A stretch of 50,342 nt of DNA from Chloroflexota bacterium (lineage in GTDB: Bacteria; Chloroflexota; Dehalococcoidia; SM23-28-2; RBG-16-64-32), in contig JADFQV010000013.1 in NCBI GenBank assembly GCA_022561635.1, forward strand, positions 1 to 50,342, given 5' to 3'. Shown piece by piece: positions 756 through 48,980 of the stretch (the stretch's first letter is position 1; each line of letters starts with the position of its first letter). The position numbers were made by a program, and so were the translations under genes. A model generated the notes under the pieces. It made no database searches. It was given only the letters and a program-made list of their open reading frames with translations, and was not told the origin of the DNA.

Positions 756-761
756 ATTCTA
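756..761 (-). promoter_or_regulatory. Possible -10 hexamer of uvrC
   Basis: TAGAAT on the minus strand, ten bases before the uvrC ATG. The gap is longer than in the best leaderless candidates of this window, so this one is weaker. Confidence 0.4.
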
Positions 762-798
762 CAGCGCGCCGCCTCTGCCGCTATTGAAGGGTGGAGGA

Positions 799-1842
799 TC
801 AGTCGGTGGCAGCCGGGGCCGCGGGCGGGTTTGACTGCGCTGGGAGCGTCAGGGAGTAGAGGATGTCGACGTGGTGGTGATGGAACTCAAACGACTCGTA
901 CAGTGCGACCGCGCGCTCGTTCGACTGGTCGACGTAGACTGCGACGGCATCAACGTCGCGCTTGCTGAGGTGCGTAAGGCCCGTCGCCAGGAGGAAGCGG
1001 CCCAGTCCGCGGCCGTAGTACTCGGGCGCTGCGCCGATGATGTATACCTCGCCGACGCGGCCCTCGCCCTCGCGCTCCTCGACCTTTAGCCAGTGGAAGC
1101 CGGCCGGGATGCCGTCGATCTCCAGGATCAGCAGGTCCTCGGGTCTGAACCAGGGCTGGCGCAGGCGGGCACTGAAATCGTCCATCGTCCACTCGCCGTT
1201 CTCCGGGTGGCCGGCGAAGACGCGGTTGTTGAGGTCCAGCCACATCTCTTCGTCCGCGCCGGGGTGGAAGGGGCGCACGGACGCTCCCTCCGGCGGTGCG
1301 GGGATCGGCGCTGGCCCGGGATGGCGGTGCATGTGCAGGAGACGCCGCGTCTCCGCGAACGCGAAGTCGCTCGCTATGGCGCGGCTGGCGGGCGAGTCGT
1401 TGTAGGCCCACAGCTCCACCCGCAACGCGCCTTGAGACCGGGCGTGTTCGATGATGTGTGAGAGGAGCGTCCGGCCGATGCCCTTTCGCCGGAACTGCGG
1501 GTGCACTGTCAGCTCGCAGGAGACGCGACGCTCGCCGGCGGCGTCGAACGTCAACGTGTGCGCATATCCGACGAGTCGTTTGTCTTCGTAGGCCATGAAG
1601 CCGACGGCCAGGTCGGCGCCGCGCTTGAGGCGCAGGAACTTGTGCTCGCCGAACGGCTCGTGGCCGTCGGCCGCCTTCGCCGCCACGATCAGGGATTCGA
1701 GCTCCTCCATGTGCTCGTCTTCGAGGCGGGAGATCACTTCAACGTTCTGCATGGGGGTCAGCGGGTTACGCCAGTCGGGCGATTGACTGATTTCGCGCAC
1801 AGGCCGCTTCGTACTCTCTCCTGTCATCCTCACTTCTTGCAA
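799..1842 (-). CDS. Tandem-GNAT acetyltransferase, mycothiol synthase (MshD)-like
   Basis: 347 residues with two GNAT folds. The first (about 35-172) carries the acetyl-CoA loop QFRRKGIG at 116-123; the second (about 188-332) carries YGRGLG at 276-281. The second half shows the text I associate with MshD: HPE near 212, WF at 231-232, GFHWLK at 248-253, GEVYIIG at 264-270 and an LYESF-type end. MshD acetylates Cys-GlcN-Ins in the last step of mycothiol synthesis. No other msh gene is in the window, so the true substrate is open; a tandem GNAT with another amine substrate is the alternative. Start: TTG at 1840-1842 has a GGAG seven bases upstream; an ATG five codons later is the alternative. 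Divergent from the hydrolase gene. Confidence 0.75.
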   Translation of the reverse strand: MQEVRMTGESTKRPVREISQSPDWRNPLTPMQNVEVISRLEDEHMEELESLIVAAKAADGHEPFGEHKFLRLKRGADLAVGFMAYEDKRLVGYAHTLTFDAAGERRVSCELTVHPQFRRKGIGRTLLSHIIEHARSQGALRVELWAYNDSPASRAIASDFAFAETRRLLHMHRHPGPAPIPAPPEGASVRPFHPGADEEMWLDLNNRVFAGHPENGEWTMDDFSARLRQPWFRPEDLLILEIDGIPAGFHWLKVEEREGEGRVGEVYIIGAAPEYYGRGLGRFLLATGLTHLSKRDVDAVAVYVDQSNERAVALYESFEFHHHHVDILYSLTLPAQSNPPAAPAATD

Positions 1843-1961
1843 ACTGACTCTCCAATTCTAAACGCAGACCCGTGGCTGCCACCACGTAACCGGCAGCGAG
1901 GTGGTGTCGTAAGATTGGAGGAGATCGCCCGCCGCTTCGTTACTGACCTGAGGAGGCCATT

Positions 1962-2951
1962 GTGCGCAAGTTCACCGTTCTTCTCGCTGCCATCGCTGCT
2001 GCTGCGGTGGTGGCCGCCGTGCCTGCCCGGAAGTTCTTCCGCAGCCGCGAGGACACAGCCTGGCGCGACGCCGAGCGCCCCGGCCGCATCGTCACGGTTG
2101 ATGGCGTCGGCCTGCACTACGTCGAGCAGGCGCCGCCGGTTGGCGGAAACGCACCCGCGATCGTGATGATCCACGGCTTCGGCGGGAACACCTACAGCTT
2201 TCGTCACCAGATCGTCGATCTGGCGCAGGACTACCGTTGCGTGGCGATCGACCTCAAGGGCTTCGGCTACAGCGAGCGGCCCGACGGCGGCGACTACTCC
2301 TTGACTGCGCAGGCGCGCCTTGTCCTGGGGGCCATGGACGGTCTGGACATCGGCAAGGCGACACTGATCGGACAGTCGATGGGCGGCGAGGTCGTGATGC
2401 GCATCGCCGAGATGGCGCCCGAGCGTGTCGAGCGGATCATTCTCGCCGCGTCGGTGCCGGGGAGGAAGGTGCCGATCGCGCCCAGGTTGTCGTTCATGCG
2501 GCGCCTGGTCGATCCGATAGCGAGGCTCGTTTCCGTGCGTTCCTGGAAGCGGCTCTTCTACGACCAGAACCGCGCCGATCTCGAGCAGGTCCGGGCTGAG
2601 TATCAGAAGCCGGGACGCATTTATGGCACGACGAGGACGTTCTGGGAGATGTGGGAGGGCATCCGCCACGATGAGCAGATCGACTTCACGCGACTGACGC
2701 AGCCGGTGTTGATCCTGTGGGCGGAGAAGGAGCGAATCCTGCTGCTGCCGGGTCAGTCTTTGCGCTGGCTCCAGGCGCAGCTCCCGCACGCCGTCACGGA
2801 GCACATACCGTTGTCCGGCCACATGCTGCTGGAGGAACAGCCGGCAGTGGTGAACGCGGCGATCCGGCGCTTCCTCGATAGCACCGGGGAGGAAGCCATC
2901 GCTCCGAAGCCGAAACTTGCAGGATTGGGCCAGCCTCAGCGCCAATCCTGA
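1962..2951 (+). CDS. Alpha/beta hydrolase, membrane-anchored or exported
   Basis: 329 residues. Residues 3-21 form one hydrophobic helix behind an MRK start, so a signal anchor or signal peptide is likely. The hydrolase fold follows: oxyanion motif HGFGG at 71-75, nucleophile elbow GQSMGG at 137-142 (Ser139) and His287 in SGHMLLEE. Where this family usually has the acidic Asp (as in GEKDRI), the protein reads AEKERI, so Glu257 may replace it. GTG start with a strong AGGAGG eight bases upstream. Substrate unknown; similar folds include esterases, haloalkane dehalogenases, epoxide hydrolases and C-C bond hydrolases. lhr follows after 36 bases. Confidence 0.85.
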   Translation: MRKFTVLLAAIAAAAVVAAVPARKFFRSREDTAWRDAERPGRIVTVDGVGLHYVEQAPPVGGNAPAIVMIHGFGGNTYSFRHQIVDLAQDYRCVAIDLKGFGYSERPDGGDYSLTAQARLVLGAMDGLDIGKATLIGQSMGGEVVMRIAEMAPERVERIILAASVPGRKVPIAPRLSFMRRLVDPIARLVSVRSWKRLFYDQNRADLEQVRAEYQKPGRIYGTTRTFWEMWEGIRHDEQIDFTRLTQPVLILWAEKERILLLPGQSLRWLQAQLPHAVTEHIPLSGHMLLEEQPAVVNAAIRRFLDSTGEEAIAPKPKLAGLGQPQRQS

Positions 2952-2975
2952 CATGGAAGTGTCAGTAGCAGGCGA

Positions 2976-2981
2976 TAAACT
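2976..2981 (+). promoter_or_regulatory. -10 hexamer of a probable leaderless lhr transcript
   Basis: TAAACT followed by exactly six bases (GTCCCC) and the GTG start. There is no Shine-Dalgarno. The same CTGTCCCC string precedes the start of the aldo/keto reductase gene at 15466. Confidence 0.5.
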
Positions 2982-2987
2982 GTCCCC

Positions 2988-5900
2988 GTGAGCATCGTCG
3001 ACTCGTTCCACCCCGTTGTCCGGGCCTGGTTCACCAGGCGTTTCGACGCGCCCACGGACGCTCAGACGGACGGCTGGCCTCATATTTTCGCCGGCCGCGA
3101 CACCCTGATCTCGGCTCCCACCGGCTCCGGTAAGACGCTCGCCGCTTTCCTCGTTGCGATCGACCGGCTCGTGCGCAAGGCGGAGGCCGGCGAGCTGGAG
3201 GACGGTGTCGAAGTCGTCTACGTCTCGCCGCTGAAGGCGCTCTCCAACGACATCCAGCGCAACCTGGACGAACCGCTGGAGGAGATCAACGAGATCGCGC
3301 GGGAGATGGACTACGACCTGCCCGAGATCCGCACGGCGCTTCGCACGGGCGACACGACTCAGAAGGAGCGGCAGCAGATCCTCAAGACGCCGCCGCACAT
3401 CCTGATCACGACGCCCGAGTCCCTCTACCTGATGATCACGGCCGAGCGCAGCCGCGCGATCCTGTGCAACGTCAAGACGGTGATCGTCGACGAGGTCCAT
3501 GCGCTGATCCGAGACAAACGCGGCAGCCACCTGGCGCTGACGCTGGCCCGGCTGGATCACATCTGCGACAAGCGGCCGGGGCGCATCGGCCTCTCGGCCA
3601 CCGTGAAGCCGATCGAATACGCCGCGCAGTTCCTCGTCGGCGCCGGGCACGTGTCCGGAGACGGCAAGGCAGACTGTGCGATCGTCGACTCCGGGCACCA
3701 GCGCGACCTGGACATCTCGATCGAAGTACCGCCAACCGACCTCGAGGCGGTCGCCTCCGGCGAGCAATGGGCTGACATCTACGACCGGCTGACGGAGCTG
3801 GTCGAGACGCACCGCACGACGATAGTCTTCGTCAACACACGCCGGTTGGCTGAGAGGGTCGCCTTCAAGCTGGCGGAGCGCATCGGCGAGGAGCACGTGG
3901 GAGCCCACCACGGCAGCCTCTCGAAGGAGCGGCGCCACCGCATGGAGCAGCGGCTCAAGGCGGGCGAGATGAAGGCGCTCGTCGCCACCGCTTCGCTCGA
4001 ACTGGGGATCGACATTGGCTCCATCGACCTCGTCTGCCAGCTGGAGTCGCCGCGCAGCATCACGACGTTCTTGCAGCGCGTCGGGCGCTCCGGACACGCG
4101 CTCGGCCTGACGCCCAAGGGCAAACTATTCCCGGCCAGCCGCGACGAGCTTGTGGAGTGCGCGGCGCTGATCCGGGCCGTGCGCGAAGGGCGGCTCGACC
4201 GCGTCTTCCCGCCCGAGGCGCCGCTCGACATCCTGGCGCAGCAGATCGTCGCGGAGACGGCCTGCGAAGCGTGGATCGAGGACGACCTGTTCGCGCTCGT
4301 CCGCCGCGCCTGGCCGTATCAAGCGCTCGCGCGAGAGTCGTTCGACCAGGTCGTCGAGATGCTGAGCGAGGGCATCGCTGTCGGCAGCGGGCGCGCATCG
4401 CACTTCCTGCACCGAGACCGCATCAACGGAGTCGTGCGCGGCCGCCGCGGCGCGCGCAGCACGGCGATCCAGTGTGGCGGCGCGATCCCCGAGATCGCCG
4501 ACTATCGCGTCATCGCGGAGCCCGAGGGCACCTTCGTCGGCACGCTGGACGAGGACTTTTCGATCGAGTCGATGGCCGGCGATATCGTGCTGCTGGGCAC
4601 GACGTCGTGGCGCATCAAACGGATCGAGTCAGGCGGTGTCATCCGCGTCGAGGACGCCCACGGCGCGCCACCGACGATCCCCTTCTGGAACGGCGAAGCG
4701 CCCGGACGCACACTCGAACTCTCCGAGGAAGTCTCCCGTTTGCGCATCGACATCTCGCAGCGCCTGGAGGCATCCGACAACGGGACGAACGGTTCGTCCG
4801 ATTCGGGCGCCAACGTCACGAAGTGGGTGCAGGACGAGTGCGCGCTGAGTCCGGAGGCGGCAGAGCAGGTCGTGAGCTACATCCGGGTGCAGAAGGAGAT
4901 GATGGGCCTTGTCCCGTCGCAGGAAGACATCGTCTTCGAACGCTTCTTCGACGAAAGCGGTGGCATGCAGGTGATCCTCCATGCGCCGTTCGGAGCGCGC
5001 ATCAACCGGGCGTGGGGCTTCGCGCTGCGAAAGCGGTTCTGCGTCAGCTTCGACTTCGAGCTACAGGCCGCGGCCAGCGATGACGCGATGCTGCTCTCCA
5101 TAGGGCCGAACAATAGCTTTCCGCTGGAGGACATGTTCGGCCTCGTCAACCGGCCGACGTTGCGTGAGTCGATCGAGCAGTCGCTGCTCATCGCCAACGC
5201 GCCCGTCTGGCAGGCACGCTGGCGCTGGAACTCGACGCGCTCGCTGGCCATCTTGCGCCAGCGCAACGGCAAGCGCGTGCCGCCGCCGCTGCAGCGGATG
5301 CGGTCGGACGACTTGATGGCCGCGGTCTTCCCCAGGCTCGTCGCCTGCCAGGAGAACGTTACCGGCGCGATCGATCTGCCCGACCACCCGCTGATCAACC
5401 AGTCGATGCACGACTGCCTCACCGAGGCGATGGACATCGACGGCCTGGACGGCGTTCTGGAGCGCATCGAGCGAGGCGAGATACGCGTTCACGCTCGCGA
5501 CACCACTGAGCCCTCGCCGTTCAGCCACGAGATGCTCAACTCCAAGCCGTACACGTACCTGGACGATGCCCCCCTGGAGGAGCGCCGCGCCCGCGCCATC
5601 TCCTTGCGCCGGACGCTGCCCCAGAGCGGCCGAGACCTCGGCATCCTCGACCCTGACGCGATCGAGATCGTGAGCGCCGAGGCCCAGCCTCAGCCGCGCG
5701 ACCCCGAGGAGGTGCACGACGCCCTGCTGGGCCTGGTCGCCGTGCGCCCGGAGTACGTCCCGGAGTGGGGCGAGTGGTTCGACGAGCTGGTTTCCCAGCG
5801 CCGGGCGGCCACGTTCGAGAGCGACGGTGAGCGCTTCTGGTTCGCGGTGGAGAACCTGCCGCTGATCGAACGGTTGTACCCGGCCGCGACGATCCGGCCC

Positions 5901-7310
5901 CGCGTTAACCTGCCGCCCGAGTTGCGGCGTGAGGTCGACGAAGAGGAGGCCCGCCGGACGGCCGTCCGCGGGCACCTCGAGGTGCTCGGCCCGACGACGG
6001 TGGGCGAAATCTCGGAGCGCACAGGGATGGCGCCGGGCGCGATCAGCTCGGCGCTGGCGTTCCTGGAGGGCGAGGGTGGCATGGCGATGCGCGGCCGCTT
6101 CAAGGTTGGGGACGATGACGAGCAATGGTGCGACCGTCGCCTCCTGGCGCGCATCCACCGTTTCACGCTCGACCGTCTGCGCGCCGAGATCGAGCCCGTT
6201 TCGGCGCAGGACCTGATGCGCTTCCTTCTGCGCTGGCAGCACGTTGCGCCGGGGACGCAGCTCGAGGGCAAGCGCGGCCTGCTGGAGGCGATCGCGCAGC
6301 TCCAGGGCTACGACATCCCGGCGGTCGCTTGGGAGCGGCATATCCTGCCGGCGCGCGTCGCTGCTTACAAGGGCACGTGGCTGGACGAACTTTGCCTGAC
6401 CGGAGACGCCGCCTGGGCCCGCATGATGCCGCGAAAGAACGGTGACAACGGCGACGGATCGGGCCCTTCCCGGCGCTCGGCTGCTTCTTCGGCCACGCCC
6501 GTTTCGCTGGCTCGGCGCGTCGACCTGCCGTGGCTGCTCGCCGGCGTGCGCAACGGCAGCCAACCGGAGCCCCCAAGCCGTGGTGCGGCGGCTGAGATCT
6601 TCGAGCTGCTGCAGTCGAAGGGCGCGCTCTTCCACGACGACATCGCTTCTGCCACACGCCGCTTGCCGACGGACGTTGGGCGCGGCCTATGGGACCTCGT
6701 CGCGCGCGGCCTGGCGACCGCCGACGGCTTCCAGGCGTTGCGCTCGCTCATGGCCTCGAACAAGAAGCGCGGCTTCCGGCGCCCGCAGAGGGCGCGCCTC
6801 TTCCGCACGCTGGCCGTGAGCGGCGTGCCGTCCGGCCGCTGGTCGCTGCTGCCGGAGTGGGAGATGGCCGGTGACAGCCTGGCGAGCGAGGAGCTGGCCG
6901 CGGCCTGGGCGGAGCAGCTGCTCTTCCGCTACGGCGTCGTCTTCCGCGATCTGGCGCGTCAGGAGAGTATGGGCGTGCCCTGGCGGGACGTGCTCAAGGT
7001 GCTGCGGCGGATGGAGGCGCAGGGCGTCGTCCGCGGCGGCCGCTTCGTCGCCGGTTTCTACGGTGAGCAGTACGCACGCCCCGAGGCTGTGGAGTCGATG
7101 CGCACGGTCCGCCGCAGCGAGAAGGAAGGCGAGCTGGTCCGCGTCTCCGCCGTCGACCCGCTGAACCTGACCGGCGTCATCACGCCCGGCGATCGAGTGC
7201 CGTCGATCCACACGAAGTCGGTCGTTTACCGCGACGGAATCCCGCTGGCCGAAGAAGAGGCGGAAGTGGCGTTGAGCGAGCGCCGGGCGCTGGTTGTGAC
7301 GACAGGTTGA
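2988..7310 (+). CDS. lhr: Large ATP-dependent helicase, Lhr family
   Basis: 1440 residues, close to the full-length bacterial Lhr proteins (about 1500). Superfamily 2 helicase motifs are clear: Q-motif-like start near residue 23, Walker A APTGSGKT at 43-50, DEVH at 168-171, SATVKP near 203, and a C-terminal RecA domain ending in a QRVGRSGHA arginine-finger motif near 365. After it comes the winged-helix/beta-barrel Lhr core and a long C-terminal region (about 900-1440) of the full-length type. Lhr is a 3'-5' DNA/RNA-DNA translocase, linked in mycobacteria to DNA-damage responses. A short Asn/Gly/Ser-rich spacer lies near residues 600-615. The gene has its own probable -10 and appears leaderless; a weak terminator-like hairpin follows at 7316-7331. 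Confidence 0.93.
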   Translation: MSIVDSFHPVVRAWFTRRFDAPTDAQTDGWPHIFAGRDTLISAPTGSGKTLAAFLVAIDRLVRKAEAGELEDGVEVVYVSPLKALSNDIQRNLDEPLEEINEIAREMDYDLPEIRTALRTGDTTQKERQQILKTPPHILITTPESLYLMITAERSRAILCNVKTVIVDEVHALIRDKRGSHLALTLARLDHICDKRPGRIGLSATVKPIEYAAQFLVGAGHVSGDGKADCAIVDSGHQRDLDISIEVPPTDLEAVASGEQWADIYDRLTELVETHRTTIVFVNTRRLAERVAFKLAERIGEEHVGAHHGSLSKERRHRMEQRLKAGEMKALVATASLELGIDIGSIDLVCQLESPRSITTFLQRVGRSGHALGLTPKGKLFPASRDELVECAALIRAVREGRLDRVFPPEAPLDILAQQIVAETACEAWIEDDLFALVRRAWPYQALARESFDQVVEMLSEGIAVGSGRASHFLHRDRINGVVRGRRGARSTAIQCGGAIPEIADYRVIAEPEGTFVGTLDEDFSIESMAGDIVLLGTTSWRIKRIESGGVIRVEDAHGAPPTIPFWNGEAPGRTLELSEEVSRLRIDISQRLEASDNGTNGSSDSGANVTKWVQDECALSPEAAEQVVSYIRVQKEMMGLVPSQEDIVFERFFDESGGMQVILHAPFGARINRAWGFALRKRFCVSFDFELQAAASDDAMLLSIGPNNSFPLEDMFGLVNRPTLRESIEQSLLIANAPVWQARWRWNSTRSLAILRQRNGKRVPPPLQRMRSDDLMAAVFPRLVACQENVTGAIDLPDHPLINQSMHDCLTEAMDIDGLDGVLERIERGEIRVHARDTTEPSPFSHEMLNSKPYTYLDDAPLEERRARAISLRRTLPQSGRDLGILDPDAIEIVSAEAQPQPRDPEEVHDALLGLVAVRPEYVPEWGEWFDELVSQRRAATFESDGERFWFAVENLPLIERLYPAATIRPRVNLPPELRREVDEEEARRTAVRGHLEVLGPTTVGEISERTGMAPGAISSALAFLEGEGGMAMRGRFKVGDDDEQWCDRRLLARIHRFTLDRLRAEIEPVSAQDLMRFLLRWQHVAPGTQLEGKRGLLEAIAQLQGYDIPAVAWERHILPARVAAYKGTWLDELCLTGDAAWARMMPRKNGDNGDGSGPSRRSAASSATPVSLARRVDLPWLLAGVRNGSQPEPPSRGAAAEIFELLQSKGALFHDDIASATRRLPTDVGRGLWDLVARGLATADGFQALRSLMASNKKRGFRRPQRARLFRTLAVSGVPSGRWSLLPEWEMAGDSLASEELAAAWAEQLLFRYGVVFRDLARQESMGVPWRDVLKVLRRMEAQGVVRGGRFVAGFYGEQYARPEAVESMRTVRRSEKEGELVRVSAVDPLNLTGVITPGDRVPSIHTKSVVYRDGIPLAEEEAEVALSERRALVVTTG

Positions 7311-7331
7311 CCTTCACCCTCACGTAAGGGT

Positions 7332-7360
7332 TTTACTTCGCGGCGCTACAGGCATATCAT
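7332..7360 (+). promoter_or_regulatory. Predicted sigma70-type promoter of the 7.4-11.6 kb cluster
   Basis: TTTACT at 7332-7337, a 17-base spacer and TATCAT at 7355-7360. The predicted start near 7367 leaves a leader of about 47 bases that contains the Shine-Dalgarno of the next gene. It sits just after a short ACCCT/AGGGT hairpin and T-run (7316-7334) that may end the lhr message. Confidence 0.5.
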
Positions 7361-7413
7361 GGCCCCGGAAAACGATAATCTCAGCGTCACTGCGCTGACT
7401 TCAGGAGAGCCCT

Positions 7414-15453: not shown

Positions 15454-15459
15454 TAGTCT
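15454..15459 (+). promoter_or_regulatory. -10 hexamer of a probable leaderless aldo/keto reductase transcript
   Basis: TAGTCT followed by six bases (GTCCCC) and ATG; no Shine-Dalgarno. Same layout and same CTGTCCCC string as lhr. Confidence 0.5.
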
Positions 15460-24348: not shown

Positions 24349-24425
24349 TGGTGGGCGATGTAGGATTTGAACCTACGACCTCAGCGATGTCAACGCTGCG
24401 CTCTAACCAACTGAGCTAATCGCCC
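24349..24425 (-). tRNA. tRNA-Val (anticodon GAC)
   Basis: 77 bases including encoded CCA. Acceptor GGGCGAT pairs with ATCGCCC; D arm GCTCAGTTGGTTAGAGC; anticodon stem CAGCG/CGCTG around loop TTGACAT; T arm AGGTTCAAATCCT. Discriminator A. The 3' end lies only about 25 bases before the first recognisable T-box element, so the two are probably one transcript. Confidence 0.97.
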
Positions 24426-24437
24426 ACGCTCTGGAAC

Positions 24438-24467
24438 ATCGTATCAATCGATGAGGAAGGTGGTCAA
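24438..24467 (-). promoter_or_regulatory. Promoter of tRNA-Val (and probably the T-box/thrS unit)
   Basis: On minus: TTGACC (24462-24467), an 18-base spacer and TACGAT (24438-24443), 12 bases before the tRNA. It is the only promoter-like pair I see upstream of the T-box. Confidence 0.7.
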
Positions 24468-24565
24468 CGAAACGGCGGATGGCGCTGTTGCCCTTGATTC
24501 GTTGGCGCGCTTCCTGAGACAATGTAATGGCGATGGCCCCAGTCCGTTGCGGAGGGGTCGTTTCG

Positions 24566-24595
24566 TTGCCTTGCTTTTCGGGTGCGTGCTATACT
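24566..24595 (+). promoter_or_regulatory. Promoter of tRNA-Lys
   Basis: TTGCCT (24566-24571), an 18-base spacer and TATACT (24590-24595); predicted start about 27 bases before the tRNA. No terminator is seen after tRNA-Leu, so tRNA-Lys, tRNA-Leu and the two ABC ATPase genes may share it. The 24426-24565 stretch between the divergent promoters holds nothing else I recognise. Confidence 0.65.
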
Positions 24596-24628
24596 GCGCG
24601 AACCTGATAAAACGAGGCCAAATAGGAT

Positions 24629-24704
24629 GGGCCACTAGCTCAATTGGCAGAGCAAGCGACTCTTAATCGCTAGGTTCAAGGTTCGAGTCCTTGGTGGCCC
24701 ACCA
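24629..24704 (+). tRNA. tRNA-Lys (anticodon CTT)
   Basis: 76 bases including encoded CCA. GGGCCAC pairs with GTGGCCC; D arm AGCTCAATTGGCAGAGC; anticodon stem AGCGA/TCGCT around loop CTCTTAA; T arm CAAGGTTCGAGTCCTTG. Discriminator A. Confidence 0.97.
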
Positions 24705-24797
24705 GGTTAAGAACAAACGATGTTGGCACTTCAACCCGCACGGCAAGATACGGACTACGTGGACGGAGTTCCGCATCGGCTTGACGTAGTACGCGCC

Positions 24798-24882
24798 GGG
24801 GAAGTGTCGGAATTGGTAGACGAGCGTGATTTAGGTTCACGTGCCGAAAGGCGTGGGGGTTCGAGTCCCCCCTTCCCCACCA
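24798..24882 (+). tRNA. tRNA-Leu (anticodon TAG)
   Basis: 85 bases including encoded CCA. GGGGAAG pairs with CTTCCCC; anticodon stem CGTGA/TCACG around loop TTTAGGT; a long variable arm (TGCCGAAAGGCG) as in class II tRNAs; T arm GGGGGTTCGAGTCCCCC. A GC hairpin (24891-24904) follows without a T-run. Confidence 0.97.
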
Positions 24883-31994: not shown

Positions 31995-32267
31995 TTGGTC
32001 GTGCTAGACGGGGAGCTAGCGGTGCCCTGAACCCGCAATCCGCTACAGCGGGGTCGAATTCCCGCTCGAGGTCGAGGCTCCGCAGAGACTACCCGTAACA
32101 AGTGGCATTGATGGTCTGGCCCTGCGCGGCAGGCCGCCACCAACCCCGCCAGATCCGGAAGGAAGCAACGGTACGTGGTTAGGTCTGGGTGCCGTAGGTA
32201 AACCGGACCGGAGCTGGCTATTACGGGCAAGACTGAGGACTGAGATCGACAGCGGGTGCACGACCGG
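31995..32267 (+). ncRNA. ffs: Large-type signal recognition particle RNA
   Basis: About 273 bases. Closing helix GGTCGTGC (31997-32004) with GCACGACC (32258-32265). The Alu-type 5' domain shows GGGGAGCTAGCGGTGCCCTG and AACCCGCAATCCGCTACAGC followed by an AGCGGGG/CCCGCT stem. Central helix pairings include CCCGTAA with TTACGGG (32221-32227) and GTCGA with TCGAC. The Ffh-binding domain IV is AGATCCGGAAGGAAGCAACGG at about 32151-32171 with the GGAA tetraloop at 32157-32160. A GCGCC-GAAA-GGCGC hairpin (about 32271-32284) without T-run follows and may help end the transcript. This fills most of the 440-base gap between galU and the next gene. Confidence 0.95.
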
Positions 32268-33288: not shown

Positions 33289-33294
33289 TATCAT
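33289..33294 (+). promoter_or_regulatory. -10 hexamer of a probable leaderless rsmA transcript
   Basis: TATCAT, six bases (CGCCGT), GTG. No Shine-Dalgarno. Confidence 0.5.
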
Positions 33295-34119: not shown

Positions 34120-35015
34120 TCAGCACGGTCGCACCGGCGAAGATCAACTGGACGCTGGAGGTGCTGGGTCGCCGAGACGACGGCTATCACGAGGTGAGAA
34201 CGGTGATGCAAGCGGTTGATCTGTGCGACGAAGTGTCAGTAGGCCTGGCAGATAGCCTAACGGTAGCGCGCAATCTAAACGCCTACGCAGCCGACGACGA
34301 AGACATCGTGCTGCGCGCGGCGCGGGCGCTGGCGGCGGCATCCGGACGAAAGGCCGAAGCTGCTATCAGCGTCACCAAACGCGTGCCGGCGGCAGCGGGC
34401 CTGGGCGGTGGCAGCTCCGACGGCGCGGCGACGCTGCGTGCCCTCGACCGCCTGTGGGAGACGGAGGCGACGGAAGATCGTCTTCACGAGGTGGCGGCGG
34501 GGCTTGGCTCAGACGTGCCGTTCTTCCTCACCGGCGGCACCGCGCTTGGTGAAGGGCGGGGCGAGCGAATGACGCCGCTGGCCGACGTCGGCCCAACCTG
34601 GCTGGTGATCCTCGTGCCAGCGCTGACGATGTCCGAAAAGACGAAGCAGATGTACGCCGCGCTGAGGCCAGGCGACTTCACCAGAGGATTGCAGACCGAC
34701 GACTTCGTGGCTCAGCTGTCGTCCGGGCGGCCTGTCGCGGGCGACAGCTTGTTCAACGCCTTCGAGCGGGCGGCGTACGAGTCGTTCGACGGCCTGGCTT
34801 CATTCCGGGACTCGCTGGTGCAGGCTGGGGCGCCGTCGGTTCACGTCTGCGGAGCCGGGCCGGCGCTGTTCTGCGTGGCCAGCGGTGAGTCAGAGGCGCG
34901 GGCGATCCGCTCTCGCGTGGCACGCGTTCGGCGGGGGGAGAAGGTACACGTTGTTCGTACGTTGACGGGAGCGGAGTCTACGGCGGTGTGGTCTGACGGT
35001 GAGGCATCCGGATAA
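34116..35015 (+). CDS. ispE: 4-diphosphocytidyl-2-C-methyl-D-erythritol kinase
   Basis: 299 residues from the GTG overlapping the rsmA stop. GHMP kinase of the MEP isoprenoid pathway. Seen: APAKINWTLEVLGRRDDGYHEV at the N-terminus, ATP loop PAAAGLGGGSSDGAA near 92-106, GSDVPFFLTGG near 136 and a C-terminal GAGPALFC motif. The presence of ispE means isoprenoids are made by the MEP route. The TAA stop lies inside the -10 hexamer of the next gene. Confidence 0.95.
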   Translation: MISTVAPAKINWTLEVLGRRDDGYHEVRTVMQAVDLCDEVSVGLADSLTVARNLNAYAADDEDIVLRAARALAAASGRKAEAAISVTKRVPAAAGLGGGSSDGAATLRALDRLWETEATEDRLHEVAAGLGSDVPFFLTGGTALGEGRGERMTPLADVGPTWLVILVPALTMSEKTKQMYAALRPGDFTRGLQTDDFVAQLSSGRPVAGDSLFNAFERAAYESFDGLASFRDSLVQAGAPSVHVCGAGPALFCVASGESEARAIRSRVARVRRGEKVHVVRTLTGAESTAVWSDGEASG

Positions 35016-35018
35016 CAT
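35013..35018 (+). promoter_or_regulatory. -10 hexamer of a probable leaderless PHP-protein transcript
   Basis: TAACAT, overlapping the ispE stop codon, then six bases (GAACGC) and ATG. Confidence 0.5.
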
Positions 35019-35768: not shown

Positions 35769-35774
35769 TATGAT
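35769..35774 (+). promoter_or_regulatory. -10 hexamer of a probable leaderless dinG transcript
   Basis: TATGAT, nine bases, GTG; no Shine-Dalgarno in the gap. Confidence 0.45.
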
Positions 35775-41859: not shown

Positions 41860-41865
41860 GTTGCG

Positions 41866-41871
41866 AGTTTA
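41866..41871 (-). promoter_or_regulatory. -10 hexamer of a probable leaderless CCA-enzyme transcript
   Basis: TAAACT on minus, six bases (CGCAAC), ATG. The same hexamer and spacing as lhr. An overlapping TACAAT lies five bases further upstream. Confidence 0.5.
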
Positions 41872-41886
41872 TTGTAGAGTTGTCTG

Positions 41887-41916: not shown

Positions 41917-41948
41917 TTGCCTGTAATTCCTCGCAAACTTGTGAAAAC

Positions 41949-41975
41949 GAGCCGCTTAACCGCGGCTCTCTTCGT
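41949..41975 (+). terminator. Hairpin in the rnc leader (attenuator or small-RNA end)
   Basis: GAGCCGC and GCGGCTC pair around TTAACC, preceded by GAAAAC and followed by TCTTCGTC. It could terminate a transcript of about 50 bases from the 41887-41916 promoter, or be a processing stem in the rnc leader. Confidence 0.5.
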
Positions 41976-41986
41976 CAAAGGGCACG

Positions 41987-41992
41987 TATTCT
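41987..41992 (+). promoter_or_regulatory. -10 hexamer of a probable leaderless rnc transcript
   Basis: TATTCT, six bases (AGCGCT), ATG. No Shine-Dalgarno precedes rnc, so this second start site would give a leaderless message. Confidence 0.5.
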
Positions 41993-41998
41993 AGCGCT

Positions 41999-42721: not shown

Positions 42722-42727
42722 CACGCC

Positions 42728-45700
42728 GTGTACCTGAAGCGTCTCGATCTCTACGGCTTCAAGAGCTTCGCCTCTCGAACAACGTTCGACTTTGGTCAGG
42801 GCATCACCGCCATCGTTGGCCCCAACGGGTCTGGTAAGTCGAACATCGCCGACGCCCTGCGCTGGGTGCTAGGCGGGCAGTCGAACAAGCTGATCCGGGC
42901 CAAGAAGATGGAAGATGTCATCTTCACCGGCTCGAGCAAACGCTCTCGCTCCGACAAGGCGGAGGTGACGCTGACGCTGGACAACTCCGACGGCTGGCTG
43001 CCGATAGACAGCGAAGAGGTGTCGATCAGGCGTCGAGGCTCCCGCTCCGGTGACAGCGACTACTATCTCAACGGCAAGAAGGCCAAGCTGCGGGACATCC
43101 ACGTCCTGCTGGCCACGGCCAGCGTCAGCCAGAGTTCGTACGCCATCATCGGCCAGGGCCTCGTCGAGAGCGTGCTCAGCCTGCGCCCGGAAGAACGCCG
43201 CGAGATGATTGAGGAGGCGGCGGACATTCAGCGCTACCGGCTGAAGATCGGAGAAGCTGAAGACCGCCTGAAGTCCGCACACGAGAACATCCAGCGTGTG
43301 AAGCTGTTGATCAAGGAGATCGCCCCGCGGTTGCAGCAGCTCGAGCGGCAGGCCACCCGCGCCGGAGAACACGCGCGTCTGTCGCTGAGGCTGAGCCAGA
43401 GCCTGCAGGTGCACTACGAGCAGCGTTGGCGTCACGCAGAGGAGTCGCTGACGGTGGCCCGTGCGGGGCACGATCAGGCGCAGGCCGAGTTCACGCAGTC
43501 GCGCGTGGGCCTGGAGACGCTGCAGAAGGAACTCGACGATCTGACGAAGCAGCTTGATGAGAGCCGCAAAGCCGCCTCGGCCGCGCTCCAGGACAAGGAG
43601 CGTCTGTCGGAAGCGGTGCTTGAGGTCGAGAGCCGCCAGACGATCGCAATCGAACGGCGGACGATCCTTCAGGCGCGGCAGGAAGAGCTGGGCGAGGAGC
43701 TTGCTGGGGCCGAAGCAGAGCGAGAGCGGGCCACGACGTTCGTAGCCTCTGAAGACAGCGAACGCGAACGACTGGAGCGGGAGGTGGCGGCGGCGCGCAA
43801 GGTTCTGGCCGAGCGCCAGGGCGAGCTGACGACAGCGGAACAGGAGCTGCGCGATTCGCACGTCCAGGCCGCCGACGTCGATGCTAAGGCACACCGGCTG
43901 CAGGCGGCCGCCGCGGAGATGAAGGTGCGCATCAACCGGCTGGCAGAGGCCGGCAGGGCACTCGGCAAAGAGGCGTCAGGCCTCGATACGCGGCGCAAGT
44001 CGCTCGTGACGCAGATGGGCGAACTAGTGCGCGTGCTGCGCAGCCTGCGTACGCAGGACGCACAGTTTCTCGCGGAGAACTCGGAGACGGGCGCCCGACG
44101 GCAGAAACTGGATGCAGGCGTGCGCGAGCTGCGCGAGGCGTTGGCAGAGGTGGAGACGGCGCAGCACGCCCGACGCGGCAAGCTGGAGGGGCTGGAGGCG
44201 CGGCTGGCGGTGCTCTCCGCGGCACAGAAGCAAGCAGCCGCCGAGCCGACCGAAGAGGTGATGATCGAAGGCGCAGTGGGCACGATCTTCGATGGCCTAC
44301 GCGTACCGAGAGGCCTTGAGGACGCGATCGCGGCCGTTCTGCAGGAGCACCTGGAGGCCTTCGTCTTCGAGCGCCAGGCCGACGCCATCGCGGCGATCGA
44401 GGGCCTGATGGCGCAGAACGGGGCGCGGGCGCTGACGATACCGATCGACGCGGTCAAGCAGGTCTATCCGCTGACGTTGCTCAAAGAGAAGGGGGTGCTG
44501 GGCGTAGCAGCCAACCTGGTCAAGTTCCCTGCGCGCTACGAGAAGGTGATGAACACGCTGCTCGGGCGGGTCATCGTCGTCCAGGATATCCCGACGGCCG
44601 AGCGGCTGCTGAAGCGACGGCTTGGCACGATCGTTACCGTGGACGGCGTCGTCTTCGATCAGTCCGGCGTTATCTCCGGCGGACGGCACGTCGAGGCCCG
44701 TGGCCTCGTGATCGAATACGAGCGTGACGTGGCCGCGCTGCCCAAGGAGATCGAGCGGATCACGAAGACGGTTGAGACGACCGAAGCGGAAGCCGAAGGC
44801 ATCCGAGAAAAGCTGCGGGCTGCCGAAGGCGCGCTGACGGAGCTGAGCAGCGAGGGCGATCAAACGCTGGACAAGAGGGTTCAGCTGCAGGATTCGGTCG
44901 CAGGGCGCCAGGAGAAGTTGGCGCAGCTGCGAGGCGAGATGCGCAGCCTGATGGCCACGGTCGCCAACGCGCGAGAGCAGCAGGCCTCGTACCGAGCCCA
45001 GGCGGAGACGCTCGAAGAGGAGCGGCAGGCGCTGATAGACGAAGCGAAGGAGGCGGCTGCGACGGCGAAGACTCTGGGCCGCGCCGACGCGATCTTCGCC
45101 GACCGACGGAAGGCCTTCAACAAGAACGTCAATGAGGCGGCCGATGCCCTGGGACACGTCGATGCCGAACTGCGCTCGCTCAGAATGCAGAGAGAGAACG
45201 CCGAAGCAGCGCTGGCGCGAGTCGAGGCTCAGGCCTCGGCCAAGGGCGTACAGCTGAGTGGCATCGAGATGGAGGTCTCGACGCTGGACGAGTCGATCGC
45301 GCGCGACGAGAAAGAGCTGAAGAGTGCGCGAGCGGAGCTGGAGAAACTGCTGGAAGGTCTCCCGAGCCGGGAAGGGACGCATCACCTGGAAGCGCGGGAG
45401 CGAGACCTGAACAGCCAGGTGTTGAGCAGCCAATCGCGACTCTTCGACGCCGAGCGACGGACGCTGGAGGCCGAGGCCGAAGTGCGGAAGTGGGAGACGG
45501 AGACAGAAGTGCTGCGCACGCGCATCGCCGAAGACGGCCTGGTGCTCACAAAGGACGGGGAAGTCCGGCCGGATAAGGCGACTGCCGACGTGCAGCTGCC
45601 GTCCTGGATGGCGGAGGCCGAGGGCGAAGACAAGGGCGAAGGCCGGCGGCCTCCATTGGCCGGCGGTCAGCATGTCGAGCCGGACGCGCTGGCCAAGGAG

Positions 45701-46366
45701 ATCGAGGGGCTGCGCTCGCAGATTCGCGCGCTGGGGCCCGTCAACGTCGAAGCGCTGGGCGACTACGAGTCGCTACGCGAGCGTCACGACTTCCTCGCTG
45801 GCCAGGTTGAGGATCTGGCGGGCGCCGAGCAGTCTCTGAAGCGGGCGATCACAGAGCTGACTGCTCTCATGCAACGCAAGCTGGAGACGACGTTCAAAGA
45901 AGTGGCGAAGGGCTTCGAGTCCTACTTCAAGATGTTCTTCGGAGGAGGTCACGCGCGATTGCGCCTGACCGACCCGAAGCACCCGATGGACTCCGGCGTC
46001 GACATCGAGGCGCGTCCGCCGGGCAAGAGGACGAAGAGCTTGAGTCAGCTTTCCGGCGGCGAGAAGGCGCTGACGTCGGTGTCGCTGCTGTTTGCGCTGC
46101 TGCAGGCGAATCCCTCGCCGTTCTGCGTGCTGGACGAGGTAGACGCCATGCTGGACGAGGCGAACGTCGATCGCTTCGCGAGCGCGATTCACGATATTTC
46201 TCAGCGCACTCAGTTCATCGTGATCACGCACAACCGCCGCACGATAGAGGTCTCCGACAGCATCTACGGCATCTCGATGGCTCCCGACGCCGCGTCGCGC
46301 GTGCTGTCGATGAGGTTGGCCGACGTGCCGGTCGAGGCCGTCAAGAAGCCCGGCTCGCAGAACTAG
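42728..46366 (+). CDS. smc: Chromosome segregation protein SMC
   Basis: 1212 residues, full length. N-terminal ATPase lobe with Walker A GPNGSGKSN at 31-39 and QGLVESVLS, long coiled coil (about 165-500), hinge (about 515-640 with AIAAVLQEHLEAFVFE and GVIFDQSG-like text), returning coil (about 670-960), then a Glu/Gly/Arg-rich loop near 965-985, and the C-terminal lobe with signature LSGGEKALTSVSLLFAL near 1108-1124 and Walker B CVLDEVDAMLDEAN near 1133-1146. GTG start. Condensin core for chromosome organisation. Confidence 0.97.
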   Translation: MYLKRLDLYGFKSFASRTTFDFGQGITAIVGPNGSGKSNIADALRWVLGGQSNKLIRAKKMEDVIFTGSSKRSRSDKAEVTLTLDNSDGWLPIDSEEVSIRRRGSRSGDSDYYLNGKKAKLRDIHVLLATASVSQSSYAIIGQGLVESVLSLRPEERREMIEEAADIQRYRLKIGEAEDRLKSAHENIQRVKLLIKEIAPRLQQLERQATRAGEHARLSLRLSQSLQVHYEQRWRHAEESLTVARAGHDQAQAEFTQSRVGLETLQKELDDLTKQLDESRKAASAALQDKERLSEAVLEVESRQTIAIERRTILQARQEELGEELAGAEAERERATTFVASEDSERERLEREVAAARKVLAERQGELTTAEQELRDSHVQAADVDAKAHRLQAAAAEMKVRINRLAEAGRALGKEASGLDTRRKSLVTQMGELVRVLRSLRTQDAQFLAENSETGARRQKLDAGVRELREALAEVETAQHARRGKLEGLEARLAVLSAAQKQAAAEPTEEVMIEGAVGTIFDGLRVPRGLEDAIAAVLQEHLEAFVFERQADAIAAIEGLMAQNGARALTIPIDAVKQVYPLTLLKEKGVLGVAANLVKFPARYEKVMNTLLGRVIVVQDIPTAERLLKRRLGTIVTVDGVVFDQSGVISGGRHVEARGLVIEYERDVAALPKEIERITKTVETTEAEAEGIREKLRAAEGALTELSSEGDQTLDKRVQLQDSVAGRQEKLAQLRGEMRSLMATVANAREQQASYRAQAETLEEERQALIDEAKEAAATAKTLGRADAIFADRRKAFNKNVNEAADALGHVDAELRSLRMQRENAEAALARVEAQASAKGVQLSGIEMEVSTLDESIARDEKELKSARAELEKLLEGLPSREGTHHLEARERDLNSQVLSSQSRLFDAERRTLEAEAEVRKWETETEVLRTRIAEDGLVLTKDGEVRPDKATADVQLPSWMAEAEGEDKGEGRRPPLAGGQHVEPDALAKEIEGLRSQIRALGPVNVEALGDYESLRERHDFLAGQVEDLAGAEQSLKRAITELTALMQRKLETTFKEVAKGFESYFKMFFGGGHARLRLTDPKHPMDSGVDIEARPPGKRTKSLSQLSGGEKALTSVSLLFALLQANPSPFCVLDEVDAMLDEANVDRFASAIHDISQRTQFIVITHNRRTIEVSDSIYGISMAPDAASRVLSMRLADVPVEAVKKPGSQN

Positions 46367-46423
46367 TAACGTCCGGCGCGTGTAACGGCGCCGGGCCTAA
46401 GGCGATACAATAGGTGGAGACCT

Positions 46424-46801
46424 ATGTCTGCTTCTCCCGTAGTCCTCGCGCTCATATCCGAGCTGATCACCTTCGTCCGCGTGGAAAGCGGCGTGCAGCG
46501 GCTGGGCGGCCAGCTGCGTGCCGCCGAGACAGAGGAGGCGTTTCTGCAGCAGCTGGCGTCGTCCCCGGCTCTTGCTGTGATCGACCTGGGCCAGCAGGGG
46601 CTGGACATCATGGGTCTCGTCGCGGCCTGCCGAGAGGCCCGCGTGCCGGTGCTGGCGTTTGGGCCGCACGTAGACCTTGGCCTCCGGCGCGACGCCGTGA
46701 GGGCCGGTGTGGACTTCGTCTATCCGCGCAGCAAGTTCATGGCCGATCCCACTACCTGCATGCGCGGCGCCATCGCCAGCACTCGCGCGCAGACGACCTG
46801 A
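46424..46801 (+). CDS. Degenerate receiver-like (pseudo-REC) protein
   Basis: 125 residues. The pattern of alternating strands and helices, with ALAVIDL near 52, PVLAFGPHVD near 74 and AGVDFVYPRSKF near 93-104, fits a CheY-like receiver. The Asp in VIDL could be the phosphoacceptor, but the switch Thr/Ser (here FG) and the KP motif (here PRSK) are not conserved, so phosphotransfer is doubtful. GGTGGAG before the ATG and a TACAAT (46406-46411) upstream. Sits between smc and ftsY; no kinase nearby. Confidence 0.65.
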   Translation: MSASPVVLALISELITFVRVESGVQRLGGQLRAAETEEAFLQQLASSPALAVIDLGQQGLDIMGLVAACREARVPVLAFGPHVDLGLRRDAVRAGVDFVYPRSKFMADPTTCMRGAIASTRAQTT

Positions 46802-46862
46802 ACGGCGATCTGCCAGCTGATGCCTGAGCGACTTCTGCTTGTCCTTCGCGAACGCTCGCCCA

Positions 46863-46868
46863 TATCAT
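46863..46868 (+). promoter_or_regulatory. -10 hexamer of a probable leaderless ftsY transcript
   Basis: TATCAT ends seven bases before the ATG at 46876 (four before the in-frame GTG at 46873), which favours the ATG. Confidence 0.45.
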
Positions 46869-46875
46869 CGGGGTG

Positions 46876-47964
46876 ATGGTCAGATTTTTCCGCCGCAAGA
46901 AGGACGACGAAGCAGCCGGCGAACAGGGCGCGCCAGAGGAAGAGGCCGTCGCCGAAGACGGGGCTGAGGAAGCCCGGGAAGCGGCAGCCGCCGCGGTGGC
47001 AACGACTGAGGACGCCCCACCCGAGCGGGACGAAGAAGAGGCAGCTCCTGTCGAAGAGGCGGTCGAGCGGACGCGCAAGACGTGGTTCGGACGCATTGGC
47101 GGCATCTTCAAGCGCGGCCTCGATGACTCGCTCTGGGAGGAGCTGGAGGAGACGCTGATCGCGGCCGACACCGGCGTGCAGACGACGATCCGCATCATTG
47201 AGGACGTGCGGGCGCGCGTGAAGGAAGAATCGATCCGCGACCCGGAGCAGGCCCTTGACGTGCTAAAGGAAGAGATGATCGAAGTGCTGGACGTGGACAC
47301 CGACCGAGGCAAGATATGGGGTCCGGACGGCGACCGGGAACTGCCTGAGGGGATAGCCGTGATCCTCGTCGTCGGCGTGAACGGCACCGGCAAGACCACG
47401 AGCATCGGCAAGATGGCGCACGCCTACAAGGCGCGGGGCAAGAAGGTCGTGCTCGCCGCCGCTGACACGTTTCGTGCCGCCGCGATCGAACAGCTCAAGG
47501 AGTGGGGTGAGCGCGCGGGCGTCGATGTCGTCGCCCACCAGCAGGGCGCCGATCCGGGCGCCGTAGCCTTCGACGCGCTGACGGCGGCCGAGAAGCGCGA
47601 GGCGGACGTTGTAATCATCGACACAGCGGGCCGCCTGCACACGAAGGCGAACCTTATGGAGGAGCTGCGAAAGGTCGATCGTGTGATCCAGCGGAAGATT
47701 CCGGGTGCACCGCACGAGGTGCTCCTGGTACTCGATGCAACCAGCGGCCAGAACGCGATGCAGCAGGCGAAGTACTTCACGGACGCCGTCGGCGTCTCGG
47801 CAGTCCTCCTCGCGAAGCTGGACGGCACAGCCAAAGGCGGAGTCGTCTTCTCGATCTGTGATCAGCTTCGCGTTCCGGTGCGCTTCGTCGGTACCGGCGA
47901 GCGGCCGCAGGATCTGGCTCGGTTCGAGCCGCGGACCTTCGTGCAGGCGCTCTTCGCCGGCTAG
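46876..47964 (+). CDS. ftsY: Signal recognition particle receptor FtsY
   Basis: 362 residues from the ATG at 46876 (363 if the adjoining GTG is used). A basic start ([11 protein letters not shown]), an acidic Ala/Glu-rich A domain (about 10-65), then the NG core: N-domain [19 protein letters not shown]1 [15 protein letters not shown] near 167-181, [15 protein letters not shown]3 DTAGRLHT near 250, and G4 reading AKLDG near 313 in place of the usual TKLDG. Docks SRP-ribosome complexes at the membrane; its RNA partner ffs is 15 kb upstream. Confidence 0.96.
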
Positions 47965-48000
47965 CGGCCGAAGAGTGGCCACCGGGCTGCGACTGGTCTG

Positions 48001-48285
48001 CTAGTCGCTGTCGATCGTCGGGGTGTCCTCCGGCTGGACCGGCGTCGCGGGCTCGACGTTGTGAGCGATGGCCGGGGTCTCCGGCGGTTCTTCATCCGGG
48101 TAGTCGCCTTCGTCCGCCTCTTCGCGGGCTTCCTCGCGGCCGTAGAAGAAGACGGCGAGGGTGGCGATGCCGCCGGTGGCAAGGACTGCGGTGATGGTGA
48201 GGTTCAACTGCTGGCCGGTCGCCAGGAAGATGACGAGCATGACGACGCTGAGGCCGGCGACGATGGCAAGTGAGGCAGGGTTCAC
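48001..48285 (-). CDS. Small two-helix membrane protein with acidic tail
   Basis: 94 residues. Two hydrophobic helices (about 6-24 and 29-48) with a short QQLNLT turn, then a Glu/Asp/Pro-rich cytosolic tail from REEAREEADEGD to the end. GTG start at 48283-48285 without Shine-Dalgarno. No family recognised. Converges on ftsY with 36 bases between stops. Confidence 0.65.
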   Translation of the reverse strand: MNPASLAIVAGLSVVMLVIFLATGQQLNLTITAVLATGGIATLAVFFYGREEAREEADEGDYPDEEPPETPAIAHNVEPATPVQPEDTPTIDSD

Positions 48286-48291
48286 CGGGTC

Positions 48292-48297
48292 AATTTA
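48292..48297 (-). promoter_or_regulatory. -10 hexamer of a probable leaderless small-membrane-protein transcript
   Basis: TAAATT on minus, six bases (GACCCG), GTG. Confidence 0.45.
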
Positions 48298-48309
48298 ACA
48301 GGCGCTGGC

Positions 48310-48657
48310 TCAGGCGACCAGCGCGACGCGACCGTCGACGGACACGAAGAGGATGGCTGTGGGCTCCTCTCGCCGGAACAGCACCTCGACGCCGGGATAC
48401 ATTTCCACTTCGTCGATCGCCTTTAGTGTCCACGTGGACTTGCCGAGGCGCACGTCGGCGCGATCGAGCGAGGGCCAGATGAGGAGAAGGATCTCAGCCT
48501 CATGCTCGCGGCTGCGGAGCCGCAGTTCGTAGACAGGTGCCCCGTCGCTACTGTCGCCGGTGGCTTCCTGGTCCGGCACCCGGAACGGTGCCTCCGTCAG
48601 CTCGGCGGCGAGAAGCCGGGCGATGGCCTCCGGCGCCCCCGCGTCTGAGAGGCGCAT
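48310..48657 (-). CDS. Hypothetical protein, beta-rich
   Basis: 115 residues. A helical start (SDAGAPEAIARLLAAELTEAP) and then alternating strands (PVYELRLRS, EAEILLLIWPSLDRADVRLG, TAILFVSVDGRVALVA). No cysteine or His cluster, no membrane segment. Its ATG shares one base with the TAA of the cupin gene (TAATG), so it is coupled to it. No family recognised. Confidence 0.65.
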   Translation of the reverse strand: MRLSDAGAPEAIARLLAAELTEAPFRVPDQEATGDSSDGAPVYELRLRSREHEAEILLLIWPSLDRADVRLGKSTWTLKAIDEVEMYPGVEVLFRREEPTAILFVSVDGRVALVA

Positions 48658-48965
48658 TAGGCCGAGGCCTCGACGCAGGTCACGCCGTCCGGGCCGACGA
48701 CGGCCGCGTGGGTCGTTCCGGGCGGGATGTCCAGGCGATCGCCAGGACGAAGCCGGAAGTCATCGGCGTCCGGCACGACGAACGTGATATCGCCGCGAGC
48801 GCAGTAGAGCACTTTGTGATACGGGTGCGAGTGAGGGCTGTAACGGTCGTGTGGCGCGTTGGACCACCAGCTGGGCGTAAGGCCGGCCTCGGCGAAGAGT
48901 CGTTCGAGCGACCGGCGAGAAGGCGCCTCGTCTTGCGGCCACGTGGTGAGAGTGGGCTGTGGCAT
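48657..48965 (-). CDS. Small cupin-domain protein
   Basis: 102 residues. Cupin motif 1 with HDRYSPHSHPYHKVLYCARGDITF near 39-62 (metal-binding His residues in HSHPYHK) and motif 2 RPGDRLDIPPGTTHAAVVG near 72-90. The pattern of a single cupin barrel with three His fits a metal-dependent binding or isomerase/dioxygenase role; substrate unknown. ATG with no Shine-Dalgarno; TAGACT ends nine bases upstream. Divergent from the citrate synthase gene. Confidence 0.83.
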   Translation of the reverse strand: MPQPTLTTWPQDEAPSRRSLERLFAEAGLTPSWWSNAPHDRYSPHSHPYHKVLYCARGDITFVVPDADDFRLRPGDRLDIPPGTTHAAVVGPDGVTCVEASA

Positions 48966-48974
48966 CTGTTGGGC

Positions 48975-48980
48975 AGTCTA
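48975..48980 (-). promoter_or_regulatory. -10 hexamer of a probable leaderless cupin transcript
   Basis: TAGACT on minus, nine bases, ATG; no Shine-Dalgarno. Confidence 0.4.

What the first reader, a model, noticed from the sequence alone, without database searches (positions are those of the whole stretch)
756..48980. Recurrent leaderless-gene architecture: TANNNT six to nine bases before the start codon
At least eleven genes have a TANNNT hexamer ending 6-9 bases before ATG/GTG and no Shine-Dalgarno in the gap: lhr (TAAACT, 6), aldo/keto reductase (TAGTCT, 6), lepA (TAACCT, 7), rsmA (TATCAT, 6), PHP protein (TAACAT, 6), dinG (TATGAT, 9), CCA enzyme (TAAACT, 6), rnc (TATTCT, 6), ftsY (TATCAT, 7), the 48001-48285 membrane protein (TAAATT, 6) and the cupin (TAGACT, 9); uvrC (TAGAAT, 10) is borderline. 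In this layout transcription would start at the first base of the start codon. Genes inside operons and others (galU, oppD-type, gltA, LLM, pheT, hydrolase) keep strong Shine-Dalgarno sites, so both modes coexist. Leaderless initiation through a -10 next to the start codon is established for Deinococcus-Thermus and Actinobacteria; its extent in this lineage is the open point.
Basis: partly seen in the sequence, partly recalled or inferred. Interest (0 to 1): 0.72.

Follow-up and report, generated by a model that had tools for sequence, protein, structure and literature searches.

The report
Promoter boxes abutting start codons
In this uncultured Chloroflexota bacterium roughly one gene in ten has its promoter touching the start codon, so its messenger RNA should begin at the start codon or exactly three bases before it; the first layout is known from other bacteria, the exact three-base version looks like a family-specific variant.

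Summary
In 1.02 Mb of the same genome with motif-blind gene starts, TANNNT six bases before the start is the strongest of 64 comparable patterns (47 against about 8). About 9-11% of genes, mostly operon-leading, carry it beyond background, similar to Deinococcus deserti plasmids handled identically. The boxes have real -10 composition, and conservation in relatives supports them (lepA in 22 of 29 genomes). So this is known leaderless transcription in a Chloroflexota lineage, where an earlier survey put it at 4-6% in 4 of 12 genomes.

A pyrimidine-purine step 7-8 bases after the box predicts mRNAs starting at the start codon (0-nt leader; ATG or GTG, no TTG) or three bases upstream (3-nt leader, GNN-ATG; TTG tolerated). 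Whole-genome counts in 14 family members confirm spacing 9 over 8 (239:122); other families of the order do not (100:116), nor does D. deserti. No RNA 5' ends exist to prove transcription starts.

The parts
2976..2981 (+). TAAACT, -10 box, spacing 6 to lhr GTG 2988
   Evidence: Lhr by Pfam
15454..15459 (+). TAGTCT, -10 box, spacing 6 to aldo/keto reductase ATG 15466
   Evidence: PF00248
27087..27092 (+). TAACCT, -10 box, spacing 7 to lepA GTG 27100
   Evidence: box and spacing identical in three other genomes of the genus, boxes at spacing 6-10 in 22 of 29 genomes of the class, own included
33289..33294 (+). TATCAT, -10 box, spacing 6 to rsmA GTG 33301
   Evidence: PF00398; no relatives' upstream DNA could be obtained
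35013..35018 (+). TAACAT, -10 box, spacing 6 to PHP protein ATG 35025
   Evidence: kept in G002; spacing 9 or 10 in three other loci
35769..35774 (+). TATGAT with TGC extension, -10 box, spacing 9 to dinG GTG 35784; predicted 3-nt leader
   Evidence: spacing 9 in eight genomes and 10 in two more, mostly with TTG start
41866..41871 (-). TAAACT, spacing 6 to CCA enzyme ATG 41859; box assignment uncertain
41871..41876 (-). TACAAT, spacing 11 to the same CCA start, the likelier -10 box
   Evidence: TACAAT/TATAAT kept in relatives outside the genus
41987..41992 (+). TATTCT, -10 box, spacing 6 to rnc ATG 41999
   Evidence: kept in two of three other genomes of the genus
46863..46868 (+). TATCAT, -10 box, spacing 7 to ftsY ATG 46876 (4 to GTG 46873)
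   Evidence: PF00448
48292..48297 (-). TAAATT, -10 box, spacing 6 to GTG 48285 of the small ORF
   Evidence: no Pfam match
48975..48980 (-). TAGACT, -10 box, spacing 9 to cupin ATG 48965; predicted 3-nt leader
   Evidence: PF07883
756..761 (-).
49038..49043 (+).

Best explanation
The TANNNT boxes are -10 elements of the housekeeping (sigma-70 type) promoter placed so that RNA polymerase, starting 7 or 8 bases downstream, begins the mRNA at the start codon (spacing 6/7, 0-nt leader) or three bases before it (spacing 9/10, 3-nt leader). Neither mRNA has room for a Shine-Dalgarno site, so ribosomes must load on the 5' end itself. The mode serves about a tenth of genes, mostly first genes of transcription units, next to a larger SD-led set. 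Shown here: box position, composition, initiator step, operon bias, conservation. Inferred: actual transcription starts and how ribosomes engage these mRNAs.
For: TANNNT is the top pattern of 64 at spacing 6 (47 against 7.9) and second at spacing 9 (34 against 7.9) with motif-blind starts. Free positions of adjacent boxes resemble -10 boxes: A 0.50 at position 4 and A/C 0.87 at position 5, against 0.31 and 0.69 in distant TANNNT. Pyrimidine-purine step at nt 7 in 83% (spacing 6) and 65% (spacing 9), at nt 8 in 56-57% (spacings 7 and 10), against about 32-37% in distant boxes. Boxes lead operons: 90 of 578 first genes against 12 of 335 inside operons, p 4e-9. No TTG among 65 spacing-6/7 starts, as in mycobacteria where leaderless needs ATG/GTG (PMC4633059). 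Conserved for lepA, dinG and, within the genus, rnc and CCA. D. deserti run through the same pipeline peaks at spacing 6; E. coli shows none.
Against: No RNA data. Gene starts come from a home-made codon-usage caller. 200 kb of a same-genus genome (G002:C22) shows no enrichment, cause unknown. A small S. meliloti sample shows a weak excess, so the box is not exclusive to classic leaderless phyla. A -35 element is not evident.
Confidence: 0.9

Rival explanations
1. Only one leaderless mode exists; at spacing 9-10 RNA polymerase still starts at the start codon, with a longer discriminator, and the 3-nt leader is not used.
For: Pyrimidine at -1 is also enriched in spacing 9/10 genes (37 of 55 against 223 of 479). 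RNA polymerase start choice is flexible (general knowledge).
Against: The Y(-4)R(-3) step is more strongly enriched (34 of 55 against 144 of 479, p 7e-6). A start 10-11 bases past the box is unusual, and a dip at spacing 8 is not expected from simple flexibility. TTG starts occur at spacing 9/10 and are conserved in dinG, while a 5'-terminal TTG does not work in mycobacteria (PMC4633059).
Confidence: 0.25
2. The boxes are chance hits or a by-product of AT-rich upstream sequence.
For: TANNNT is short; whole-genome counts of TANNNT-N6-ATG without gene context barely exceed the control.
Against: Sharp peaks at 6 and 9, no peak at internal ATG/GTG codons, conservation in relatives.
Confidence: 0.02
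3. Spacing 9/10 genes have wrongly chosen starts, the true start being three bases upstream.
For: The offset is exactly one codon.
Against: The triplets at -3 to -1 are varied (gcc, gac, gat, gct, agc and so on) and are not start codons; in dinG the start column is GTG or TTG in ten genomes with the box.
Confidence: 0.03
4. The adjacent promoters are secondary; main transcripts start further upstream and the genes are translated by an SD-independent but leadered route.
For: Some genes lie less than 50 bp behind a same-strand gene (lhr, rsmA, PHP, dinG in the window) and are probably also read from upstream.
Against: No SD in these genes; boxes are enriched in operon-first genes and conserved.
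Confidence: 0.12

Closest known systems
TA-led (leaderless) genes of bacteria, Zheng et al. 2011 (PMC3160421)
   Same: TANNNT about 12 bp (first T) before the start, no SD, -10 identity; Chloroflexi included in the survey.
   Different: Chloroflexi there: 4 of 12 genomes, average 4.7% of genes, TAtaaT-like boxes. Here about 9-11% by a cruder method, a degenerate TANNNT in a 65.6% GC genome, and a second peak at spacing 9/10. The methods are not interchangeable.
-10-motif adjacent to ORFs in Deinococcus-Thermus (PMC12340547)
   Same: TANNNT at spacing 6-7, coexistence with SD genes; shown there by mutation to act as the promoter.
   Different: There the motif sits about 6-7 bp upstream; my run on D. 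deserti plasmids has one peak (6:19, 7:5, 8:3, 9:2). The 9/10 peak is lacking.
Mycobacterial leaderless mRNAs (PMC4633059, PMC3898074)
   Same: ATG or GTG at the 5' end, never TTG, matching the spacing 6/7 class.
   Different: The TSS study counts everything within 5 nt of the start as leaderless, so a 3-nt class would not be separated there.

Membership tests
TA-led leaderless genes (PMC3160421) | TANNNT signal enriched at about 12 bp (first T) before the start | tested here: met
   spacing 6 means first T at -12
TA-led leaderless genes (PMC3160421) | no Shine-Dalgarno site in the same genes | tested here: met
   0 of 65 spacing-6/7 genes; partly forced by geometry
TA-led leaderless genes (PMC3160421) | mRNA 5' end at the start codon | not testable with these tools
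   no RNA data; the initiator step supports it
-10-motif promoters of Deinococcus-Thermus (PMC12340547) | box 6-7 bp from the ORF | tested here: met
   lhr, aldo/keto reductase, lepA, rsmA, PHP, rnc, ftsY, 48001-48285
-10-motif promoters of Deinococcus-Thermus (PMC12340547) | box 6-7 bp from the ORF, for dinG, cupin and uvrC | tested here: not met
   spacing 9, 9 and 10; a separate peak genome-wide
-10-motif promoters of Deinococcus-Thermus (PMC12340547) | box required for transcription when mutated | not testable with these tools
   needs reporter assays
Mycobacterial-type leaderless translation (PMC4633059) | start codon ATG or GTG only | tested here: met
   spacing 6/7: 34 ATG, 31 GTG, 0 TTG
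Mycobacterial-type leaderless translation (PMC4633059) | start codon ATG or GTG only, for the spacing 9/10 class | tested here: not met
   43 ATG, 8 GTG, 4 TTG (at least one TTG is a mis-called start, the window CCA gene); dinG TTG conserved in seven genomes

The most novel reading that the evidence does not exclude
This family uses two discrete leader lengths, 0 and 3 nt, and avoids 1 and 2. The 3-nt class (GNN-AUG, tolerant of UUG) would be a second SD-independent initiation mode, in which one in-frame triplet ahead of the start codon is accommodated by the ribosome, and it would have arisen at about family level within the Dehalococcoidia-type Chloroflexota.
Probability: 0.45. Interest if true: 0.7.

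Novelty: new variant of a known kind. Interest (0 to 1): 0.5.

Why it matters
It extends a quantified leaderless gene set to an uncultured Chloroflexota lineage in which gene starts are only predicted, and improves start annotation there. The two-peaked spacing makes a testable prediction about how short a leader a bacterial ribosome tolerates: 0 and 3 nt favoured, 1-2 nt disfavoured. It also gives natural pairs (lepA at spacing 7 or 9 in sister lineages, dinG with TTG at spacing 9) for measuring this.

Tried and rejected
Whole-genome counting of TANNNT-N6-ATG without gene context: coding background swamps it; replaced by gene-aware counts and by extended -10 patterns. A -35 element was looked for at spacers 14-21 and was not convincing. 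The idea that spacing-9 starts hide a start codon three bases upstream was rejected from the triplets. The idea that the empty 200 kb of G002 is foreign DNA was not supported: its tetranucleotide profile matches G000 at 0.90-0.94, and a joint gene model does not restore the signal. S. meliloti proved a poor negative control (weak excess in 86 genes).
Full report
What and where. The window is contig 51 of a 1.81 Mb, 83-contig metagenome-assembled genome, 84% complete, 65.6% GC. Its LepA is 96% and 90% identical to Chloroflexi/Chloroflexota MAGs B46T1L10 and OFTM284 and 68% to Dehalococcoidia UBA1123. The lineage is therefore Chloroflexota, near Dehalococcoidia and SAR202; genomes searched as relatives are unnamed.

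Checking the claim. The gene names I tested agree with Pfam: Lhr, aldo/keto reductase, RsmA, PHP-associated, DinG-like exonuclease-helicase, CCA/poly(A) polymerase, RNase III, FtsY, cupin; the 48001-48285 ORF has no match. About 1.6 such boxes are expected in the window.

Genome-wide test. I took 60 stretches of the same genome (with the window, 1.02 Mb) and called genes with a codon-usage model that ignores upstream sequence (1028 genes, 88% of bases). Among all XYNNNZ patterns at spacings 6, 7, 9 and 10, TANNNT at 6 ranks first and at 9 second. ATG/GTG codons inside genes show a flat profile. The excess over decoy spacings is 9-11% of all genes and 11-14% of genes that lead a transcription unit, but only 3-4% inside operons. 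It is even across five random samples of the genome (8-10%) and across contigs (dispersion p 0.22). An exact TANNNT is required, so this is a floor. D. deserti plasmids put through the same procedure give 10-13%; E. coli gives none.

Are they -10 boxes? Bases not used for selection are A at position 4 (0.50) and A or C at position 5 (0.87), as in -10 elements, compared with 0.31 and 0.69 in distant TANNNT. Many carry an upstream TG, the extended -10.

Two spacings. The profile has peaks at 6/7 and 9/10 and a dip at 8 (8 against 9: p 0.0008, chosen after looking). Counting from the box, the pyrimidine-purine step that RNA polymerase favours lies at base 7 for spacings 6 and 9 and at base 8 for spacings 7 and 10. 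This places the predicted start at the start codon for 6/7 and three bases upstream for 9/10. At 9/10, Y(-4)R(-3) occurs in 34 of 55 against 144 of 479 genes with neither SD nor TA signal (p 7e-6). The classes also differ in start codons: 34 ATG, 31 GTG, 0 TTG against 43 ATG, 8 GTG, 4 TTG (GTG share p 0.0002). One of those TTG calls is the window CCA gene, whose likely start is ATG 41859.

Independent support. In whole genomes of 14 other members of the family, TGMTANNNT followed by ATG at spacing 9 occurs 239 times (reversed-pattern control 78), at spacing 8 122 times (control 104), at spacing 6 134 times (control 76) (sums). Ten genomes from other families of the order give 100, 116 and 66, so the spacing-9 excess is largely a family trait (p 3e-6). 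The genomes share ancestry, so this shows conservation rather than many origins. The spacing-8 background is probably inflated by codon phase, which makes the comparison conservative (inference). D. deserti has a single peak (9/10 to 6/7 ratio 4:24 against 55:65, p 0.002).

Conservation at single genes. lepA has a box at spacing 6-10 in 22 of 29 genomes of the class, own included: spacing 7 in the genus and elsewhere, 9 in eight genomes, 10 in two, 8 clearly in one. Two of the lepA genes without a box have an SD site instead. dinG has a box preceded by TGC or TGA at spacing 9 in eight genomes and 10 in two more, with TTG as the start codon in seven; family f2 and several class members have an SD site instead. 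PHP shows spacing 6 in the genus and 9 or 10 elsewhere. rnc keeps its box in two of three other genus members.

Literature. Zheng et al. 2011 report leaderless signals in 4 of 12 Chloroflexi genomes, 4.0-5.7% of genes (PMC3160421). Deinococcus-Thermus boxes lie about 6-7 bp upstream and act as promoters when tested (PMC12340547). Mycobacteria translate leaderless mRNAs only from ATG or GTG at the very 5' end, not TTG (PMC4633059). In M. tuberculosis a TSS within 5 nt of the start is counted as leaderless (PMC3898074). I found no paper on leaderless genes in Dehalococcoides or SAR202, and none describing a 0/3-nt split in bacteria; the library is partial, so this is weak evidence of novelty.

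Limits. No RNA 5' ends; predicted gene starts; 56% of an incomplete genome read; relatives unnamed. One same-genus contig of 370 kb, read over 200 kb, shows no TA-led starts beyond background (3 of 160 genes with a box at 6-10); sampled genes there are molybdopterin oxidoreductases, Fe-S and signalling proteins, so leaderless usage may differ between core and accessory genes. That is unexplained.

Verdict. The part that deserves a specialist's attention is the second, three-base class.

Noticed in passing
L176-L185 (G002:C22:1-200000): 200 kb of a same-genus genome has no TANNNT enrichment next to starts although its composition matches the lineage; sampled genes are molybdopterin oxidoreductases, Fe-S proteins, PAS/GGDEF signalling. 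Core and accessory genes may differ in leaderless usage.
   Followed up: partly
lepA loci L033, L038, L050, L058, L059, L060, L065: lepA also has TATAAT/TATACT-type boxes 6-7 bp before ATG in other Chloroflexota MAGs, in Gastranaerophilales and in a record labelled only uncultured bacterium (L059); lepA may be a widely leaderless gene.
   Followed up: no
window 41866-41876: The CCA gene has two overlapping -10-like boxes, TACAATAAACT, at spacings 11 and 6.
   Followed up: partly
window 49038-49043: TAAGAT 7 nt before ATG 49051 of an ORF running off the window end, divergent from the cupin; an additional leaderless candidate.
   Followed up: no
window 31999-32263: Bacterial large SRP RNA (Rfam RF01854) in the 568-bp gap between genes.
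   Followed up: no
window 24349-24882: Three tRNA genes: Val(gac) on -, Lys(ctt) and Leu(tag) on +.
   Followed up: no
G116, G143, G148, G158: The spacing-8 extended -10 pattern is far above the reversed-pattern control in several class members; probably codon phase (NTG MTA), not checked with gene context.
   Followed up: no
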